Of a DNA stretch of 49,141 nt, positions 1,187-40,613 are shown one piece after another. How positions within the stretch are numbered: the first letter of the stretch is position 1; each line of letters begins with the position of its first letter. A model generated the notes under the pieces. That model saw nothing but the letters and a program-made list of their open reading frames with translations, did not search any database and was not told the DNA's origin. Source of the stretch: a virus; the IMG/VR virus record IMGVR_UViG_3300030616_000036, positions 1-49,141 of that record. The stretch is one strand, 5' to 3'. The translations under genes and the position numbers were made by a program.

Positions 1187-2614
1187 TTAAATTACATTAA
1201 CTGTTATTCTTGTTAAAGCCCATACTGATATTTCATCAGAATCTATAGATATTTTAGTACTACCATATGAAGGTGTACCCATTTCTGTAGCTGTTATAGC
1301 TATAGTAATTACTATAGTATCTACTCCAGGAACCTCATAAATCGGAACATAGAATCTACCTGGAATTATATCCTCTCCTATATCTAAAGAGTCCCCATAT
1401 TCAAGTATTTTTTCTTTTATTTGATCTACTCCATCACTGGGGAAAGTTTCTTCGCTGTATAGAGTAATATTTGCTATTAACCATGCATATTGATTCACAG
1501 GTCTCGAAAAATACATTCTTTGAGTATCACCATTATCATCTGTTATATCTCTAAAATCATTACCATATGTTTGTATCCCTGCTGGTTTAGTATCCCATAT
1601 TTTTTGAGCTATTTCTATTTCATCTCCTCCCACTATTACTATTTCAAGAGAATGAGCTGGTCTTCCGTCACCATCTACAACATCAGTTCTATTTTCAAAA
1701 CCTTTTACAACTGTTACATTATCTACATCATTAAGTATTCTTGCTACCATTGCAGGAAGTGTACCAGCTCCGGTAATCTGTAGACTTTGTAATCTTCTTA
1801 TTCTAAGTTCAGTATCAGTTTCTGGTTCTCTTCCTTTTATACCATCTTCAAAATTATTTACCACATCTAATCCTACTAATGGAGTTTCTATAACTGTTAA
1901 TGTATCTGATACAGCTAATATTTCACCAAGTTCTACAGATTCAAAATCACTGATAGTATAGTGTTCTAAATTAGAATCATAAGCAGTATCAAATGATAAT
2001 GATTTTGTAGTGATCATTATTACACCATTACCAATATTTTGAGCTGTTACTGCTGCTCCTGAATCCGCTGTGATATCTGCTACAAGTCCAGTTGCTATTT
2101 CATCAGCAGTTGCACTACTATCTGAAGTGTATGTATAGTTAGTAGTATTAATAGTTATCGTATATAAAGTACTATTGACCACATTTTTTACAGCTACTAC
2201 TATCTTTACTTGTGTTAATGGTGTTATTGTTGTATCTTGTTTTAGCTGAAATATAGATCCATCAGTATTAGAGCTTACTTGTGTTCCTTGAGTTACAATA
2301 GTTCCATTAGTTCCTTTTAATCCTACTTCAACTTCAGTTGCTAATGATGCAAGTCGTGTAATTCTATTAAGAGCTACATTATAATCTAATGTTAGACCGT
2401 CAGCAAGGTTAGGAGATGCAGCATCATATGATTTTTGTAACTGTTCCCATACTTCAGCAGCTTGATTAGCAAAAACGCCATTAAGTTGACCTAATACTGA
2501 TTCTGAACTTGTATCTACTACTCCAAAAGCTGCTTTTTGTGCTTCCTCTATTTCATCAAGTATATCAGATAATCTTTTAATTGAAAATCCTGTTGAAAGA
2601 ATACCAAAACTCAT
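1187..2614 (-). CDS. baseplate J-like protein
   Basis: 475 aa. The N-terminus (FSIKRLSDILDEIEEAQKAAFG...LGQLNGVFANQAAEVWEQLQKSYDAASP, about 10-70) and the later block GREPETDTELRIRR...AGTLPAMVARILNDVDNVTVVKGFENRTD (about 261-310) are typical of Baseplate_J/gp6-like wedge proteins of contractile tails. Between about residues 145 and 215 it carries an inserted beta-rich module (YTITIN...YTSDSSATADEIATGLVADI) resembling the modules in the sheath and cement proteins of this genome. It overlaps the stop of the gp25-like gene by 4 bp (ATGA), indicating translational coupling in the baseplate operon. Confidence 0.9.
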   Translation of the reverse strand: MSFGILSTGFSIKRLSDILDEIEEAQKAAFGVVDTSSESVLGQLNGVFANQAAEVWEQLQKSYDAASPNLADGLTLDYNVALNRITRLASLATEVEVGLKGTNGTIVTQGTQVSSNTDGSIFQLKQDTTITPLTQVKIVVAVKNVVNSTLYTITINTTNYTYTSDSSATADEIATGLVADITADSGAAVTAQNIGNGVIMITTKSLSFDTAYDSNLEHYTISDFESVELGEILAVSDTLTVIETPLVGLDVVNNFEDGIKGREPETDTELRIRRLQSLQITGAGTLPAMVARILNDVDNVTVVKGFENRTDVVDGDGRPAHSLEIVIVGGDEIEIAQKIWDTKPAGIQTYGNDFRDITDDNGDTQRMYFSRPVNQYAWLIANITLYSEETFPSDGVDQIKEKILEYGDSLDIGEDIIPGRFYVPIYEVPGVDTIVITIAITATEMGTPSYGSTKISIDSDEISVWALTRITVNVI

Positions 2615-8754: not shown

Positions 8755-10116
8755 TTATAATACTAATGTACCATTTATTTGTACTGTATGTATTGCATTA
8801 GAGTACCAGCAAGTAAATTCCACATTATTAAGTACTCTATTCGTTTTATCAGCTTGGGAAACTGCTGATACCTCTGGAACAGTAACTGAAAAACCACCTT
8901 CTCTTACTTTAGTTTGCGAATTAAAACTGTCAGGGGTAATAGCTCCATTATCTTGAGCTACCTTTAATATTTGAGTTATAGCGTTTTCAACTAAAGTTAT
9001 ACCTTGATCAGTATAAGGTATCTTTTGTTGATTTACCATTAGATTCCAAACATTTTCCTGAATTTTTGCTTCTAACCAATCAACAAATACTATAATATCT
9101 GTAAATTCTCCGTTACTTACATATCCTTGACGTACTACATTGACTTCACCTATTTCCGTATAGGTGTTACATTTTTTAGCATGAGCATTAGTTTCTTGAG
9201 TAGTGGTAAGATCATCAACTGATTCACCACCAAGAGTTTTAGCGTTTCCGGTCCATGTTCCGGCTATATAAGCCAACATTTGACCTAAATATGCAGCATC
9301 TGTATATTTAGTAGCTGCATCACTTTTATAAAATAATGATACTCTATCGTTTGATGCATTATTAAATATATATGCTAATGATGTAGTATCTACTCCTGAA
9401 GCTTGATCAACTATATTAGAATCACTACTTGAGGTAGCATATATTTTCTTATTTGACAAACACCATGCAGCAGCAGCAGTTTGTTTAGTAGTATCACGTT
9501 CAGTGGTAATTACACCATAAAAAGCTTGAGACTCGTTAAGTATTGCGTTTAATGTAGCGGTCATTGTAGCATCTCCAGAATCTTCTCTACCTATCCCTAT
9601 TTGTGAGATTCTTGGAGATTGAGCAGCTATTGCTGATGCTGCTTCATATTCGGGAGATTCTGTACCATCAGTATATTCTCCTTCAGCTTGTGAAGCTCCT
9701 CCAGCTACTACTATACTTGTTACTGTAGTATTAGTAACTCCTGTAGCACTTTGTATTATTATCGTTCTTGAGTCTGCATCATTAGGATCAATTACAACAC
9801 TTTCAACTGTAGAAAGTAATTCAAGAGCTGTTACTATCAATGCCATAGTTGCAACATGCGAAGTAGCAAATGTAACTTGTCCCATTGATTGCCCATTAAC
9901 ATCCATATCAATAGTATTACTCGCTACAAGATCAGCATCAAAAACAAGTTTTCTTACATCTTTCGCTAATTCAGAAAGAGATCCAGTACTATAGTATCGT
10001 ACTCTTTCATAAAATGATGCATATTGACCTACAATTAAAGCAACATTAAAATTTTTTGATTGTGTGGGACTTGATTGTCTTGTGATTGTTACATCAATTA
10101 TACTACTAAGATCCAT
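8755..10116 (-). CDS. tail sheath protein, DUF3383-like, with inserted module
   Basis: 453 aa. DUF3383-type sheath features are the start MDLSSIIDVTITRQSSPTQSKNFNVALIVG and, after residue 155, ASAIAAQSPRISQIGIGRED...ESQAFYGVITTERD and VFVDWLEAKIQENVWNLMVNQQKIPYTDQG near the C-terminus. Residues about 56-151 (LVFDADLVASNTIDMDVNG ... ASQAEGEYTDGT) form an inserted module, about 60-70 % identical by eye to two copies in the cement protein. The module probably decorates the outer surface of the sheath. It lies next to the tube gene. Confidence 0.92.
   Translation of the reverse strand: MDLSSIIDVTITRQSSPTQSKNFNVALIVGQYASFYERVRYYSTGSLSELAKDVRKLVFDADLVASNTIDMDVNGQSMGQVTFATSHVATMALIVTALELLSTVESVVIDPNDADSRTIIIQSATGVTNTTVTSIVVAGGASQAEGEYTDGTESPEYEAASAIAAQSPRISQIGIGREDSGDATMTATLNAILNESQAFYGVITTERDTTKQTAAAAWCLSNKKIYATSSSDSNIVDQASGVDTTSLAYIFNNASNDRVSLFYKSDAATKYTDAAYLGQMLAYIAGTWTGNAKTLGGESVDDLTTTQETNAHAKKCNTYTEIGEVNVVRQGYVSNGEFTDIIVFVDWLEAKIQENVWNLMVNQQKIPYTDQGITLVENAITQILKVAQDNGAITPDSFNSQTKVREGGFSVTVPEVSAVSQADKTNRVLNNVEFTCWYSNAIHTVQINGTLVL
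9664..9951 (-). repeat. shared virion module, copy in tail sheath
   Basis: This segment encodes the module that begins VFDADLVASNTIDMDVNG and ends near GASQAEGEYTDG. At DNA level bases 9908-9939 match 13951-13982 and 14296-14327 in the cement gene with about one mismatch in 32, which points to recent copying between genes and not to an old shared fold. Confidence 0.85.
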
Positions 10117-10125
10117 ATGATTCTC

Positions 10126-10644
10126 CTATGTTAAATCTATATTAAAATTTTGTGTTTTATCTGGTTCTTTTACATTATTTTCTATATTAATTGTTTCTAT
10201 CAAACCTAAATCAACATTGTCATTTTGTGAAACAAATCCAAATGATAAATCCATTGAAGCTCTTTCTTCAAATTCCAAATCATTTAAACCAGTGATATTT
10301 AATATTGCTAACTGATCTACTAAAGTTAATCCTCCAGCTCTTAGTAATTCATTAGATGAATCAAGTAATCTAACATTCCATAAATCTTCAAGCATACCGA
10401 AAGCGTTATTCCCATATGCTTGAAAATTTACTATTATCTCTCTATCACCGCTTATTTTACCTATACCGCTATCATCAGGATCACTTATAAAACCATGACC
10501 TATTGCTTTTAAAGATTGTCTCCTCAAAGCTATATATGGTAAATCACTTTTTGGGCAATTCTGGTTTTGCCAATCTACGGTAATCCCAGAATAAGTTACG
10601 GTCCAGGTATAAATCAAAGTGTCGATAGTATTAAAATTAATCAT
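10126..10644 (-). CDS. neck terminator/tail terminator protein, LIC_12616-like
   Basis: 172 aa. The N-terminus (FNTIDTLIYTWTVTYSGITVDWQNQNCPKSDLPYIALRRQS) and the middle (SGDREIIVNFQAYGNNAFGMLEDLWN) resemble the gp12-like neck terminator/LIC_12616 family that sits between head completion proteins and sheath. The gene order here (connector, this gene, sheath) is the usual one. TGA stop of the upstream gene overlaps its start. Confidence 0.7.
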   Translation of the reverse strand: MINFNTIDTLIYTWTVTYSGITVDWQNQNCPKSDLPYIALRRQSLKAIGHGFISDPDDSGIGKISGDREIIVNFQAYGNNAFGMLEDLWNVRLLDSSNELLRAGGLTLVDQLAILNITGLNDLEFEERASMDLSFGFVSQNDNVDLGLIETINIENNVKEPDKTQNFNIDLT

Positions 10645-10988
10645 TTTGATGTTACCCTTGTAACTATATATTTAATATGATTTATTATTGAATTTTCCCA
10701 TCTTTCTATTGAAAAAACCTCAAAATCTTGAGAAGAAATAGATACTCTATCTGGATTCTCATCATCAGAAACAGTTCTTAATATCGGTGAAGAATCTGTA
10801 TATAATTTATAACTTTCTCCTGATGATCTTCTACCCTCTGGAAGAAGTTCTAACTCTTTAGATGTTAGAGGTTGTATGCTCGTATTAATAGAAAATGTTG
10901 AAGGTGTACCTTCTACCCACTTTCCGTTTACTTTAGATCCTCCGGTATATCTTGTTACTGTTAATGATTGTCTTGGTATTAATCCCAT
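10641..10988 (-). CDS. head-tail connector / closure protein
   Basis: 115 aa. The sequence SLTVTRYTGGSKVNGKWVEGTPSTFSINTSIQPLTSKELELLPEGRRSSGESYKLYTD is typical of phage head-closure (stopper) proteins, in which a V/Y-G-x-W-x-G motif is followed by 'i.asiQP....el..l.egrr...s..iyt'. It lies between the gp10-like tail completion gene and the neck terminator, with 1-4 base overlaps. Confidence 0.75.
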   Translation of the reverse strand: MGLIPRQSLTVTRYTGGSKVNGKWVEGTPSTFSINTSIQPLTSKELELLPEGRRSSGESYKLYTDSSPILRTVSDDENPDRVSISSQDFEVFSIERWENSIINHIKYIVTRVTSK

Positions 10989-11515
10989 TATTTCAAAACC
11001 TCTACATGTGTTACTGAATTAATCATTTGTCCTGAATCAATTAATGGATTAGAGCTTTTTTTCTTCTTTATGGTTGATGGTGCATTAGGAGGAGATTTAA
11101 TATCTCTTATTTTTTTCTTGGTTTTAGCTACCATATATTCACCAATTATTGATAAAGCAACCTTTAAAGTAATTTCACCATTAATTATTTTAATATATAG
11201 TTTTTGTTTTAATCTATTTAGACCATCCATACTTTCATCAAAAGAAGTACTCATAAAAGGTCTCGGAGGTATTTTTACAGAAGATCCCCCACTCCGTGAT
11301 GATTTAGTTCCAGAAGTACCGAATTCATTAAAAGCAGCTACTATAGCAATTTCTGACATATCAGTAGCTACTTTTTCACCTTTTATTTTTTTAGATGGTT
11401 TCTTAACCTCAGCATTCTCTGGAAAACCAACTTTTGTGTAAGAACCATCCATCAATTTAAGTTCTCTACTAATTTTTGTCCATCCAAAATCTTTTACTAT
11501 TAAGTTTGCAGCCAA
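10988..11515 (-). CDS. tail completion/neck protein, HK97 gp10-like
   Basis: 175 aa. The blocks IAIVAAFNEFGT (about 56-67), IPPRPFMSTSFDE (about 82-94) and the C-terminal PPNAPSTIKKKKSSNPLIDSG are the recurring motifs of gp10-type neck proteins that join head and tail. The start overlaps the DUF4054 gene end by 16 bases. A highly basic KKIKGEK stretch separates the first two blocks. Confidence 0.8.
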   Translation of the reverse strand: MAANLIVKDFGWTKISRELKLMDGSYTKVGFPENAEVKKPSKKIKGEKVATDMSEIAIVAAFNEFGTSGTKSSRSGGSSVKIPPRPFMSTSFDESMDGLNRLKQKLYIKIINGEITLKVALSIIGEYMVAKTKKKIRDIKSPPNAPSTIKKKKSSNPLIDSGQMINSVTHVEVLK

Positions 11516-11877
11516 TTAAAAGCCCTTGTTTTTGGCTTAAAGAAACAACCTTTATTTAAGCTCATTAATGCGATACCATATGGAGTTTGAGATAGGAAAC
11601 TATCTCTGAAATCAACTTTACCATGAAAACCGTATTTCCTGAATAGATCACCTTCTTTCTCTTGCTGTACAGATCCAACTTGATTATAGTTTCCACTTGA
11701 ATTTTTAGTTAAAGATAGCCAATGCATTGTAAGTAACGCTACTGCTTTATTTCTTAGATCAGTAGTTGGATATTCAGTTCCTATCTCTTTCTCCATTAAT
11801 GCAATCAAATCTATTACAGATTGATCATTTATATCAAAAGAGGATAAAGTATTTATATAATCATTCACAGTTGACAT
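11500..11877 (-). CDS. head completion adaptor, DUF4054-like
   Basis: 125 aa. The central stretch DLRNKAVALLTMHWLSLTKNSSGNYNQVGSVQQEKEGDLFRKYG followed by DSFLSQTPYGIALMSLNKG fits DUF4054 adaptor proteins (functional analogue of gp6/gp15 adaptors at the portal). Its location between capsid and neck genes supports the call. The C-terminus continues into an overlap with the gp10-like gene. Confidence 0.8.
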   Translation of the reverse strand: MSTVNDYINTLSSFDINDQSVIDLIALMEKEIGTEYPTTDLRNKAVALLTMHWLSLTKNSSGNYNQVGSVQQEKEGDLFRKYGFHGKVDFRDSFLSQTPYGIALMSLNKGCFFKPKTRAFNWLQT

Positions 11878-11882
11878 AGTTA

Positions 11883-12302
11883 TTATTCTTTATCCTTATC
11901 ATCATCTTCACGTTTAAATAATAATTCAATTTGTTTTTCGATAGCTGATTGAATTCCTGATCTCATATCCTTTTTCTGTAATTCTTTTAATACCCAGATA
12001 TCTAAAAGACCATGATTATCTTTACCATCACCAAGTATGGCTTTTTTAGCTTCAGTAGGTTTCATGTTCTGAATCTCATTTACTATTTTTGAATTATTAC
12101 TGTTTATTTTTGAGCTGCCAATATCTTTTTTATCGGTGCTTGTTCCTGCTATCAAATATCTACCAAGTTTTAATTGAGTATTAAAAAAGTTATCGGTTTT
12201 TAATTCTTCTAATATTTTTACAGGAACTATATTATTTTCTGGATTAATTGACCACCCCTTTATAATTGAGGTGAAAGTATTTCTTGAAAAGACTTCTGAC
12301 AT
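11883..12302 (-). CDS. hypothetical protein after major capsid (139 aa)
   Basis: Unrecognised. It follows the capsid gene behind a 13-bp hairpin and has its own strong Shine-Dalgarno (GGAGG). The protein is helical and charged, ending in an acidic/basic tail (FKREDDDKDKE). Position suggests a head-assembly or head-completion role. Confidence 0.65.
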   Translation of the reverse strand: MSEVFSRNTFTSIIKGWSINPENNIVPVKILEELKTDNFFNTQLKLGRYLIAGTSTDKKDIGSSKINSNNSKIVNEIQNMKPTEAKKAILGDGKDNHGLLDIWVLKELQKKDMRSGIQSAIEKQIELLFKREDDDKDKE

Positions 12303-12328
12303 TTTTATTTCCTCCAGGTTTTTGTGAT

Positions 12329-12362
12329 AATCCAGCTTATTAATAATTAAATAAGCTGGATT
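12329..12362 (-). terminator. hairpin behind the major capsid gene
   Basis: A perfect 13-bp stem (AATCCAGCTTATT/AATAAGCTGGATT) with an 8-nt loop lies 32 bp after the capsid stop. On the minus strand it is followed by ATCACAAAAACC, with no U-tract, so it is more likely an mRNA 3'-end stabiliser or weak attenuator that raises capsid yield than a full terminator. Confidence 0.6.
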
Positions 12363-12393
12363 CTATATTTTACTTTACTTACTTTGTATTATT

Positions 12394-13335
12394 TTATATA
12401 CCTTCTACCACATGAACAGATAAAGGTCTATAAATTATTACATTTCCAATTCTTGCATGAGTATTTACCACGAATGCAAGATTCCTTTCTTGTGGTGCAA
12501 ATTGCTCAAAAGGTTGAGGTATTTGTAACTCTAATCTGCTTGGATCTCTTCTATATGCTATCATCACATCAGTTGGACCTGTAGCACCAGAAGGAGCTGG
12601 AGATAAATCTGATAATTCGTTAGCGTCTACAAATGTTACTCTTTTATGCACCCTCTGAAGGAATTCAAGGATAGTTGTATCGCTTGTAGTAGATCTTGGT
12701 GTAGTTGCAATATGTGACATTTGATCTACAGGCATTACACAAGTATCAATGATTTCTGTTTTTTTCGTAATTGTTTTAGGTGTATTAATAGCGAAATTTA
12801 CATCTGCTATAATCTGATCAGCAGTAGCAGCACTCCAAGTACCAGTAGGAGCTGGAGATTTAGTAGTGTTTGCGTTATATAAAAATCCTGTTAATCCTGC
12901 ATATGCTGCTGAACCATCAGCAAACCAGCCGTAATCATTGACAGCTTGTTCATATGATTCTCTTGCAGCTTTAGCTTTCATATTTTTTAAAGGTCTATTA
13001 GCAAACATAGCATTTCTTAAATCTTGTATGCTATATCCATATGCTCCTCTTAAACTTTTAACGGGAGATGTAAATTCTTGTCCCATTACGTCAGATCTCG
13101 GTGCATCATCTGAATAACTTGCAAGTACCTTCATTTGACCTACTCTGTCAAATTGTCTATATGTTACAGATTCAGCTCCTGGACCTGCTGAAGTATCAAC
13201 AGGGACTAATGATTTTATAATGTATTCAGGATATTGAATATCATAAGTTTTTGTTTTGATATGCTCAAGCTCTCTTGAAAAGAATAAAGCTTCATTTGCA
13301 TCAAGATTTTCAGATCTTATTACAATTTTTGGCAT
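12394..13335 (-). CDS. major capsid protein, DUF2184-like
   Basis: 313 aa. FFSRELEHIKTKTYDIQYPEYIIKSLVPVDTSAGPGAESVTYRQFDRVGQMKVLASYSDDAPRSDV and the later PFEQFAPQERNLAFVVNTHARIGNVIIYRPLSV are the hallmark sequences of DUF2184 (HK97-fold) major capsid proteins. The 'TYRQFDRVGqA..l..ysdD.Pr.dv...e' motif is unmistakable. There is no long N-terminal scaffold segment, which matches a separate nested scaffold upstream. A hairpin follows the gene. Confidence 0.93.
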   Translation of the reverse strand: MPKIVIRSENLDANEALFFSRELEHIKTKTYDIQYPEYIIKSLVPVDTSAGPGAESVTYRQFDRVGQMKVLASYSDDAPRSDVMGQEFTSPVKSLRGAYGYSIQDLRNAMFANRPLKNMKAKAARESYEQAVNDYGWFADGSAAYAGLTGFLYNANTTKSPAPTGTWSAATADQIIADVNFAINTPKTITKKTEIIDTCVMPVDQMSHIATTPRSTTSDTTILEFLQRVHKRVTFVDANELSDLSPAPSGATGPTDVMIAYRRDPSRLELQIPQPFEQFAPQERNLAFVVNTHARIGNVIIYRPLSVHVVEGI

Positions 13336-13397
13336 TTTCTTATTCTCCTATCTGTTTATAATTATTATTTATTGTTATTATTTATTATCTATTATTT

Positions 13398-14516
13398 TTA
13401 AGGAAAATTGATTTCTACTTTTACAATCCCTGGAGCAGTAGTACTTTCTTTGAATTTAGCTCCAGTAACAGCAAAACATTTACCGCTATCTGAATCATTT
13501 CTAAATTGCCCTACAAGATCACCATTACCTCCCACTTCGTGTCTACAATATACAGTATCACTACTTAAAACAGCAGTTTCTGAATAAACATAGACTGCAC
13601 CTTGACGTAAAATATTGACAGGATCATTAATTGCATATGAAACTACTCCATCCGAATCAGCTACTAAACTGAAACTATGTAAAGCAATACCATAAAGTAC
13701 ATCTCTTGTGCCTTTTGTATATGCTCCATTCGCTTGACTTGCTCCAGCAGCTACAACAATTCCAGTTACTGCGATATCTGTACCATCTACACCTGTAATA
13801 ATGATAGTTCTGTTATTAGTATCAGTAGCATCAAGAGCAGCACTTTGAACATCATCCATAGCTTCAAGAGCTGTAATAATTAATCCCATTGTATTTAAAT
13901 GAGAAGTAGCAAATGTAACTTGTGACATAGCTGTACCATTTACATCCATATCAATAGTATTACTTGCTACAAGATCAGCATCGAATACTAAAGAACCTTG
14001 ATTAAATGCTGGAAGTCTTACTAAATCATCTGAACCGTAAACATTGTCAGTATCACCTTTGAAGTATACACCATTCGCTTGACTTGCTCCAGCAGCTACA
14101 GTAATTTCAGTGATGTTAATATTTGCACCATCTACAAATGTTACTCTTATTGTTCTACTGTTAGTATCTGCTGGATCGAGAGCAGCGGTAAGAACATCAG
14201 CATTTAATATTATTTGTGCAATAATTAATCCCATTGTATTAGCATGAGAAGTAGCATAAGTAACCTGTGAAATTGATGTACCATTAATTTTAAGATCAAT
14301 AGTATTACTTGCTACAAGATCAGCATCAAAGACAATATTACCTTGATTATATGCTGGAAGTCCTGACGCACTTACAGCAATCTTCCTTACTACACCTTTA
14401 CCAATTTCAATAGCTTCAGCAGCTAAAAGACTACCTTCTACATGATCAAAACGTGCATCAGCTTTCATACCTTTGAAACCTCTTGATGGTTTCATATTAT
14501 AATTTAATTGAGGCAT
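13398..14516 (-). CDS. capsid structural cement/decoration protein with two inserted modules
   Basis: 372 aa. The ends form a cement-type protein: N-terminus about 1-54 (YNMKPSRGFKGMKADARFDHVEGSLLAAEAIEIGKGVV) and C-terminus about 274-372 (LYGIALHSFSLVADSDGVVSYAINDPVNILRQGAVYVYSE...). Two tandem copies of one module lie between them at residues about 55-156 and 170-271, each starting NQG-x-x-VFDADLVASNTID and ending AAGASQANG-x-Y. Without them the protein would be about 150 aa, near the usual cement-protein size. The same module sits in the tail sheath. Confidence 0.85.
   Translation of the reverse strand: MPQLNYNMKPSRGFKGMKADARFDHVEGSLLAAEAIEIGKGVVRKIAVSASGLPAYNQGNIVFDADLVASNTIDLKINGTSISQVTYATSHANTMGLIIAQIILNADVLTAALDPADTNSRTIRVTFVDGANINITEITVAAGASQANGVYFKGDTDNVYGSDDLVRLPAFNQGSLVFDADLVASNTIDMDVNGTAMSQVTFATSHLNTMGLIITALEAMDDVQSAALDATDTNNRTIIITGVDGTDIAVTGIVVAAGASQANGAYTKGTRDVLYGIALHSFSLVADSDGVVSYAINDPVNILRQGAVYVYSETAVLSSDTVYCRHEVGGNGDLVGQFRNDSDSGKCFAVTGAKFKESTTAPGIVKVEINFP
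13704..14009 (-). repeat. shared virion module, second copy in cement protein
   Basis: Codes for NQGSLVFDADLVASNTIDM through AAGASQANGAYTKGT. It is closer to the sheath copy than to its own tandem neighbour in the first strand (NTIDMDVNG here and in the sheath; NTIDLKING in the other copy). Bases 13951-13982 are the near-identical core. Confidence 0.85.
14049..14354 (-). repeat. shared virion module, first copy in cement protein
   Basis: Codes for NQGNIVFDADLVASNTIDL through AAGASQANGVYFKGDT. The offset to the second copy is 115 codons. Bases 14296-14327 form the near-identical DNA core shared with the other copies. Confidence 0.85.
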
Positions 14517-39749: not shown

Positions 39750-40613
39750 TTACCTTCTTTCTTTATTTTTCTTTTTCTTCTTTACAACATGAGATTTTAT
39801 CTCTGGTAAATATGGTTTCTCTTGTTCATTATTAAATGCTTTCATAAGATTTTTAAAGGATTCTTTCTTATTATTACCCATTGGGATTTTAAAAATCTTT
39901 TCTCCGTTTGTAGTAATAAAATTCTCATCCATTCTATTTTTTGCTACTATGTGTTCATCTCCAGTTATCTGTAACCATCTTTGATTATCTTCATAGAAGT
40001 AATAAAATACATTATCAATTTCTCCTACAAAGAATTCATAAGCTTGTTTGCTCAAATCTGGAGCAATCATATTATATTTAAATCCATCTACTCTAATTAT
40101 TTCTTTTTCAGTAGCATGACAGGAAGCTAAAAACCCGTATTTACTGTTTGACAGCTCCCTCATAGGATTGATAAATTCTTTTTTTACTTTATTCCAAGAA
40201 TCGCCTCTATCATTCATAGCTCCAGGATGATCTATACCATATTTTTTACAACTATATAACATTGACTGTTCATAAGCAGCTTTAACACCATCAATAGAGA
40301 TACCTTTAAAATCATACTCACTATTAATTAAATCATACTGAAAGTCAAGAAAATCATCCCAGTTTGAAACTAAATCCATTCTTACTTTAAAAGATTTATT
40401 ATTTTCAAACATTAGAAAATAAACTTTCATGAATTGACTTAATAAAGTAGTTTTTCCTATCCCTTCTCTACCATAAATTAATATTGCGTAATCACTTAAA
40501 GATCCTGAAGGAGTATAAATATCAGTAGATATTTTTTTCCTGCTACGAATTACAGGAGATTTCTTCTTTACTGCTGAATGCTTTGATTTTTTTAATTTTT
40601 TAACAACTGTCAT
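39750..40613 (-). CDS. AAA_24/Sak4-like RecA-fold ATPase
   Basis: 287 aa. GREGIGKTT (48-56) is a Walker A motif; a Walker B-like GISIDG follows near residue 105, and ASCHATEKEIIRVDG near 165 fits the AAA_24/Sak4 phage ATPase family, proposed single-strand annealing/recombination proteins. The ends are basic (KKLKKSKHSAVKKKS; VVKKKKKNKERR). It neighbours an exonuclease-type gene, as Sak4 often does. Confidence 0.75.
   Translation of the reverse strand: MTVVKKLKKSKHSAVKKKSPVIRSRKKISTDIYTPSGSLSDYAILIYGREGIGKTTLLSQFMKVYFLMFENNKSFKVRMDLVSNWDDFLDFQYDLINSEYDFKGISIDGVKAAYEQSMLYSCKKYGIDHPGAMNDRGDSWNKVKKEFINPMRELSNSKYGFLASCHATEKEIIRVDGFKYNMIAPDLSKQAYEFFVGEIDNVFYYFYEDNQRWLQITGDEHIVAKNRMDENFITTNGEKIFKIPMGNNKKESFKNLMKAFNNEQEKPYLPEIKSHVVKKKKKNKERR

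What the first reader, a model, noticed from the sequence alone, without database searches (positions are those of the whole stretch)
9664..14354. One protein module copied into capsid cement twice and tail sheath once
The segment VFDADLVASNTID(M/L) to AAGASQA-x-G-x-Y occurs twice in the cement protein (13704-14009, 14049-14354) and once inserted in the sheath (9664-9951). Across about 32 bp the DNA is near-identical between loci. Both host proteins have regular folds on either side, so the module behaves like an exchangeable surface domain, displayed on capsid and tail of the same virion.
Basis: partly seen in the sequence, partly recalled or inferred. Interest (0 to 1): 0.75.

Follow-up and report, generated by a model that had tools for sequence, protein, structure and literature searches.

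The report
Travelling surface domain in phage proteins
A small protein domain (about 88 amino acids) has been copied as a unit into loops of many unrelated outer-shell proteins of tailed bacterial viruses, here twice into a head-coat protein and once into the tail sheath, and it most likely serves as an add-on surface patch of the virus particle.

Summary
Three related ~90-residue modules lie in the window: two in the Phage_cement (PF22758) protein and one in the DUF3383 tail sheath. They are 54-68% identical in protein. A 33-bp stretch is identical in the two cement copies and differs by one base in the sheath. The module is an insert, not part of either core: relatives have clean empty sites, and AlphaFold2 folds it alone with good confidence (pLDDT 87, pTM 0.79).

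Profile searches of uncultured phage contigs found over 60 further copies in at least seven unrelated virion protein families, including cement, a head protein, tail terminator, two sheath families and baseplate wedge. It sits in six different loops of homologous sheaths and two of homologous cements. Seventeen of 44 records carry two or more copies. Module trees reject one origin per host protein. dN/dS is 0.09, like the cores, so it is not a decaying passenger. No Pfam or PHROGs family covers it.

Its fold resembles known accessory outer domains (A-1(L) and PhiTE sheaths, T7-type nozzle, flagellin outer domains). It behaves like the promiscuous phage Ig-like domains but has another fold. Surface adhesion or display is the best guess for function, unproven; outward exposure is inferred.

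The parts
8755..10116 (-). Tail sheath protein (DUF3383), 453 aa, host of the sheath module
   Evidence: PF11863 E 5e-25, phrog_205 tail sheath E 1.5e-76; sheath model matches Sf14 sheath Z 35.8 over 311 residues
9673..9945 (-). Module copy S inserted in the sheath (aa 58-148)
   Evidence: separate domain in AF2 model between helices 47-53 and 155-164; empty site in L045 and L058 sheaths
13398..14516 (-). Capsid cement protein, 372 aa, host of two module copies
   Evidence: PF22758 Phage_cement E 9e-19; phrog_563
14064..14333 (-). Module copy C1 in cement (aa 62-151)
13719..13988 (-). Module copy C2 in cement (aa 177-266); 345-bp tandem unit with C1
   Evidence: AF2 of this copy alone pLDDT 87, pTM 0.79
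13989..14063 (-). 25-residue linker between C1 and C2; its end (VRLPAFNQGS) repeats the core stretch before C1 (LPAYNQG) and matches the one-module cement of L045 (VRLPAANQGS)
9907..9939 (-). 33-bp near-identical tract in module S (one base differs from C1 and C2)
14295..14327 (-). 33-bp tract in C1, identical to C2
13950..13982 (-). 33-bp tract in C2, identical to C1
39750..40613 (-). Sak4-like single-strand annealing protein: candidate agent for short-homology exchange between module copies (inference)
   Evidence: phrog_124 E 6e-28

Best explanation
The segment is a self-folding accessory domain of about 88 residues (strands and one helix: E-E-(EE)-H-E-E-E) that moves between virion genes as an in-frame insert. 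It is accepted in surface loops because it folds on its own. In this phage it entered the cement gene, was duplicated there in tandem with a short piece of flanking core (345-bp unit), and was also copied into the sheath gene (direction cement to sheath is likely, not shown). The copies still exchange short DNA tracts, probably by annealing-type recombination (the phage encodes a Sak4-like annealing protein). In the virion it would decorate both the capsid lattice and the tail sheath, and in relatives also the neck and baseplate. Most likely it gives many weak contacts with a cell-surface or environmental polymer (adhesion and display), as proposed for phage Ig-like domains. SHOWN: insertion, independent fold by prediction, mobility among host proteins and loops, purifying selection. 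SUPPORTED: sequence exchange between cement and sheath copies. INFERRED: outward location, adhesion, role of Sak4.
For: Three copies with E from 4e-52 to 4e-30. Module alone: AF2 pLDDT 87, pTM 0.79. Sheath model: module bounded by core helices; the model matches Sf14 sheath Z 35.8. Empty sites: L045/L058 sheaths, L026 cement. Six sheath sites (window residues 36, 56, 184, 202-210, 242, 267), in or at the edge of loops; the window's own site at 56 falls in a short modelled strand bordering the module; two cement sites. At least seven host protein families. Seventeen of 44 virus records have two or more copies; 16 genomes carry it in two or more host families. AU test rejects all sheath modules as one clade (p 0.002) and all cement modules (p 0.025). 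L014 sheath and cement modules are sisters, 100/87. 53-bp identical run between sheath and cement in L002. The Ala/Thr residue in the tract is the same in all three copies within a genome but differs between genomes. dN/dS 0.092 in modules, 0.083 in cores. Accessory sheath domains lie away from the tube and are proposed to aid adhesion or stability (PMC9230969).
Against: No ligand-binding evidence of any kind. No coordinates were available, so surface exposure and clustering of conserved polar residues (N13, T36, Q88) could not be tested. Conservation at residues 7-16 is partly inflated by the search pattern. The gene-conversion case rests on one pair of lineages; codon-level support is modest (p 0.015). 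The tree does not resolve whether the window's three modules form one clade.
Confidence: 0.55

Rival explanations
1. The module is a structural clamp: on each shell it contacts a neighbouring subunit and stabilises the capsid lattice or the sheath discs, with no outside ligand.
For: Phage 812 sheath domain II contacts a neighbouring subunit and is suggested to stabilise the disc (PMC9230969). Flagellin outer domains, a fold match here, can dimerise (PMC8931119, title and abstract). Purifying selection.
Against: It sits at six different sheath sites and in seven or more proteins of different symmetry, so one conserved neighbour interface is unlikely. Close homologs of both hosts lack it altogether.
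Confidence: 0.25
2. The module is a tolerated passenger: a robust foldable insert that spreads by recombination without benefit to the phage.
For: Very wide range of hosts and loops; present in one protein but absent in homologs of close relatives.
Against: dN/dS 0.092, as low as the virion cores; conserved loop residues; found only in virion structural proteins among those that could be classified. A passenger would be expected in other genes and to decay, though a need to stay folded alone could keep dN/dS low.
Confidence: 0.15
3. The similarity reflects separate acquisitions of the domain by cement and sheath from other phages, not copying within this lineage. (Concerns origin only; compatible with any function above.)
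For: AU test does not decide the window's copies as one clade or not; many genomes have sheath and cement modules that are not sisters.
Against: Window copies are more alike (54-68%) than to the modules of other lineages checked (best about 52%); shared DNA tract and 53-bp run.
Confidence: 0.2
4. The module is an integral part of the cement and sheath core folds.
For: None found.
Against: Homologs without it and alternative insertion sites; separate domain in models.
Confidence: 0.02

Closest known systems
Ig-like domains on phage structural proteins (Fraser et al. 2006, as cited in PMC9230969; T4 Hoc, Sf14 gp20)
   Same: A small accessory domain shared between unrelated virion proteins, exchanged between phages, proposed weak surface adhesion.
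   Different: Predicted fold is strands around one central helix, not an Ig beta-sandwich; no Ig family hit; inserted in internal loops; same sequence family in many proteins of one virion.
Accessory outer domain of DUF3383 and other sheaths (Sf14 81-181, PhiTE 86-266, A-1(L) 94-177)
   Same: Similar fold by VIA-align (A-1(L) Z 8.6 rmsd 2.1 over 77; PhiTE Z 7.8 over 80; Sf14 Z 6.1 over 86); inserted in the same kind of core protein.
   Different: No sequence homology shown (hhalign probability 13%); usually at a different loop; can coexist with it (L011, L025, L037) or be nested in it (L055); also found outside sheaths.
T7-type nozzle (tail tubular protein B) domain 150-251
   Same: Fold match Z 8.4, rmsd 2.7, 86 residues; accessory domain on a tail protein.
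   Different: About 10% identity; not shown to be homologous.
Flagellin outer domains, FliD D2/D3 and Pfam Flagellin_IN
   Same: Fold match Z about 7; three modules hit Flagellin_IN weakly, best E 3e-4.
   Different: Most copies, the window's first one included, have no hit; cellular filament, not virion.
Protein-fragment shuffling in phages (Smug et al. 2023, PMC10684548)
   Same: Same general process: domain mosaicism among phage proteins.
   Different: That work stresses receptor-binding proteins, endolysins and replication proteins; its main text does not use the words sheath or decoration.

Membership tests
Phage Ig-like accessory domains | Ig beta-sandwich fold or hit to an Ig-family model | tested here: not met
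   AF2 module is E-E-EE-H-E-E-E with a central helix; no Ig family among Pfam hits of 47 modules
Phage Ig-like accessory domains | Same domain on several unrelated virion proteins, patchy among relatives | tested here: met
Phage Ig-like accessory domains | Weak carbohydrate or cell-surface binding | not testable with these tools
   needs purified protein
DUF3383 sheath outer domain (domain II) | Position after the IGRR-type strand of the core (window residue 184) | tested here: not met
   window module is at residue 56; only L004, L031, L021, L032 carry it at 184, and L055/L043 within an extra domain there
DUF3383 sheath outer domain (domain II) | Sequence homology by profile comparison | tested here: inconclusive
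   hhalign probability 13%; fold similar
Flagellin_IN (PF07196) | Significant hit across members | tested here: not met
   3 of 47 modules at E up to 1, best 3e-4; none for window copy C2
Any PHROGs or Pfam family for the module itself | Consistent significant hit of the isolated module | tested here: not met
Phage_cement PF22758 (host protein) | Profile match | tested here: met
   E 9e-19, 68 bits against cut-off 27
Tail sheath DUF3383 PF11863 (host protein) | Profile match and sheath fold | tested here: met
   88.7 bits against cut-off 34.9; Z 35.8 to Sf14 sheath

The most novel reading that the evidence does not exclude
One mobile domain family acts as a virion-wide skin: the same adhesin-like domain is displayed on head, neck, sheath and baseplate of one particle, spread by repeated in-frame insertion and kept alike within a genome by gene conversion, so that the binding specificity of the whole particle surface evolves as a unit.
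Probability: 0.25. Interest if true: 0.8.

Novelty: new variant of a known kind. Interest (0 to 1): 0.62.

Why it matters
It is an unnamed domain family that moves among unrelated virion proteins and across six sites of one conserved protein, which makes it a natural experiment in where foreign domains can be inserted in capsids and contractile tails. If it binds cell surfaces, it changes the view that only tail fibres and tips meet the host. Annotation also benefits: such modules pull unrelated virion proteins together in similarity searches (seen here).

Tried and rejected
Sequence search of the module in solved structures: nothing convincing (best E 0.037 to a sheath, gp76). tblastn in cultured phages with five different module copies: four gave no match, and the sheath copy found only four Rhizobium phages. 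Genome collection scan: one MAG. Phylum search around that MAG: only 3 genomes held. Module versus ordinary sheath domain II by profile: not significant. Test whether recent module replacement is bounded by the module: in L043/L055 the raised divergence covers the whole outer part of the sheath, not the module alone; L042/L054 is centred on the module but spreads downstream, so not used as evidence. Codon-level test of conversion within the window itself: not significant. Idea that the module is a core element of both hosts: rejected. Literature searches returned no paper describing this module in the titles and abstracts seen; the library is open-access only.

Full report
OBSERVATION. The cement protein (13398-14516, minus strand, 372 aa, PF22758 Phage_cement) and the tail sheath (8755-10116, minus strand, 453 aa, PF11863 DUF3383) were confirmed by profile. 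The module occurs at sheath aa 58-148 (9673-9945) and cement aa 62-151 (14064-14333) and 177-266 (13719-13988). A genome search with copy 2 finds only these three places, E 4e-52, 6e-33 and 4e-30. Identities are 66% (sheath-C2), 54% (sheath-C1) and 68% (C1-C2) in protein, 61-76% in DNA. The two cement copies form a 345-bp tandem unit. A 33-bp stretch is identical in the cement copies and one base off in the sheath.

INSERTION, NOT CORE. The nearest sheaths without the module (L045, L058; 371-373 aa) align on both sides and have an empty site where the window sheath has the module. A cement without it (L026, 168 aa) likewise shows empty sites. The module alone is predicted with pLDDT 87, pTM 0.79, as E-E-(EE)-H-E-E-E. 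In the sheath model (pLDDT 87, pTM 0.81) it lies between core helices 47-53 and 155-164, and the sheath model matches Sf14 sheath with Z 35.8, rmsd 2.1 over 311 residues. Sequence alignment to solved sheaths shows the same break.

SPREAD. Iterated profile searches of uncultured viral contigs gave 71 matches at module level, 67 of them near full length, the window's own included. Against 44 virus records that had been fetched for carrying it, 17 carry two or more copies. Records are mostly fragments, so this is a lower bound. Host proteins, clustered with the module masked and scanned against PHROGs and Pfam, fall into: cement (30 ORFs), DUF3383 sheath (19), baseplate wedge/J (3), phrog_939 head protein (3), a second sheath family (3, plus the Rhizobium phage sheath), a 242-aa protein of unassigned family (2; in L012 its gene lies among the head genes by position), tail terminator (2) and one unclassified 325-aa protein. 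The isolated module has no Pfam or PHROGs family. Among cultured phages tblastn finds it only in four Rhizobium phages (region read).

INSERTION SITES. With modules cut out, sheath cores were aligned and the insertion points mapped onto the window sheath model: residues 36, 56, 184, 202-210, 242 and 267, i.e. six sites in or at the edge of loops. The window's own site at 56 falls in a short modelled strand that borders the module. At 184 the module can replace the ordinary outer domain (L004, L031, L021, L032); in L011, L025 and L037 both are present; in L055 and L043 it is nested in an extra outer domain. In cements there are two sites, near aa 61-70 and aa 123-147.

HISTORY. A module tree (68 rows, 87 columns, weakly resolved) needs 22 changes of host protein against a minimum of 7; the AU test rejects one clade for sheath modules (p 0.002) and for cement modules (p 0.025). 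In L014 the sheath and cement modules are sisters (100/87). The window's copies fall in one group with a long L012 branch (93/98), and the test does not decide whether they alone are a clade (p 0.255). So repeated transfer is shown; for the window, copying within the lineage is likely but not proved. A 91.5% relative (L002) carries the same three copies. There the sheath and C2 share a 53-bp identical run against 68% overall, reached in 0 of 2000 codon shuffles; in the window the same stretch differs at several bases, and C1 has the C2-like tract while C1 of L002 differs. Codon-level support is modest (p 0.015 in L002, not significant in the window). I read this as short-tract exchange between genes about 4 kb apart. 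A Sak4-like annealing protein at 39750-40613 is a plausible agent, by inference.

SELECTION. Over eleven close pairs, dN/dS is 0.092 in modules and 0.083 in the cores. The domain is kept. Conserved positions include T36 and G85 (47 of 47), N13 (46 of 47) and Q88 (45 of 46); the first stretch (7-16) is partly favoured by the search pattern, the others are not.

FOLD. Second-look alignments give A-1(L) sheath 94-177 (Z 8.6), T7-type nozzle proteins 150-251 (Z about 8.4), Bas63 baseplate (Z 8.1), PhiTE sheath (Z 7.8), flagellin outer domains (Z about 7), Bxb1 capsid 306-390 (Z 6.6), Mu and Sf14 sheaths (Z about 6) and FliD. The tool warns that Z under 8 is common; the recurrence of outer domains of phage tails and flagella is suggestive, not proof of kinship. 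Profile comparison with the ordinary sheath domain II is not significant.

FUNCTION. Published analysis of sheath proteins places additional domains away from the tail tube and proposes adhesion or virion stability (PMC9230969). Ig-like domains on decoration proteins are proposed to aggregate particles or bind host or environment (PMC11821841). The many sites and hosts argue against one conserved subunit interface, and low dN/dS against a passenger. I therefore favour outward display with weak adhesion (about 0.55 for the whole account; mobility itself above 0.9), with a structural clamp as main rival.

LIMITS. No coordinates were available to test exposure. The cement protein was not modelled. 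The set comes mostly from uncultured fragments found through one conserved stretch.

Noticed in passing
window 39750-40613: Sak4-like ssDNA annealing protein (phrog_124 E 6e-28); the phage also has its own DNA polymerase, primase and helicase and no tRNA gene.
   Followed up: partly
window 8755-10116: The window sheath lacks the ordinary DUF3383 outer domain at residue 184 and carries the module at residue 56 instead.
   Followed up: yes
L055 7554-9521 and L043 7602-9515: Sheath with the module nested inside an extra copy of the ordinary outer domain; the whole outer part is more diverged between the two than the core.
   Followed up: partly
L066 7314-9062 and L052 1-1494: Two modules in one sheath (almost back to back) and two in one baseplate protein.
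   Followed up: no
window 1187-2614: Baseplate wedge protein (phrog_6) without the module, although its homologs in L043, L044 and L052 carry one or two.
   Followed up: no
L067 8152-10473 (Rhizobium phage RHph_N46): The only cultured phages found with the module (this and three relatives): a large sheath with one full and one partial copy.
   Followed up: partly
L012 11139-12116: 325-aa protein with the module and no PHROGs match, in a phage that also carries it in a 238-aa protein encoded among the head genes and in a sheath.
   Followed up: no
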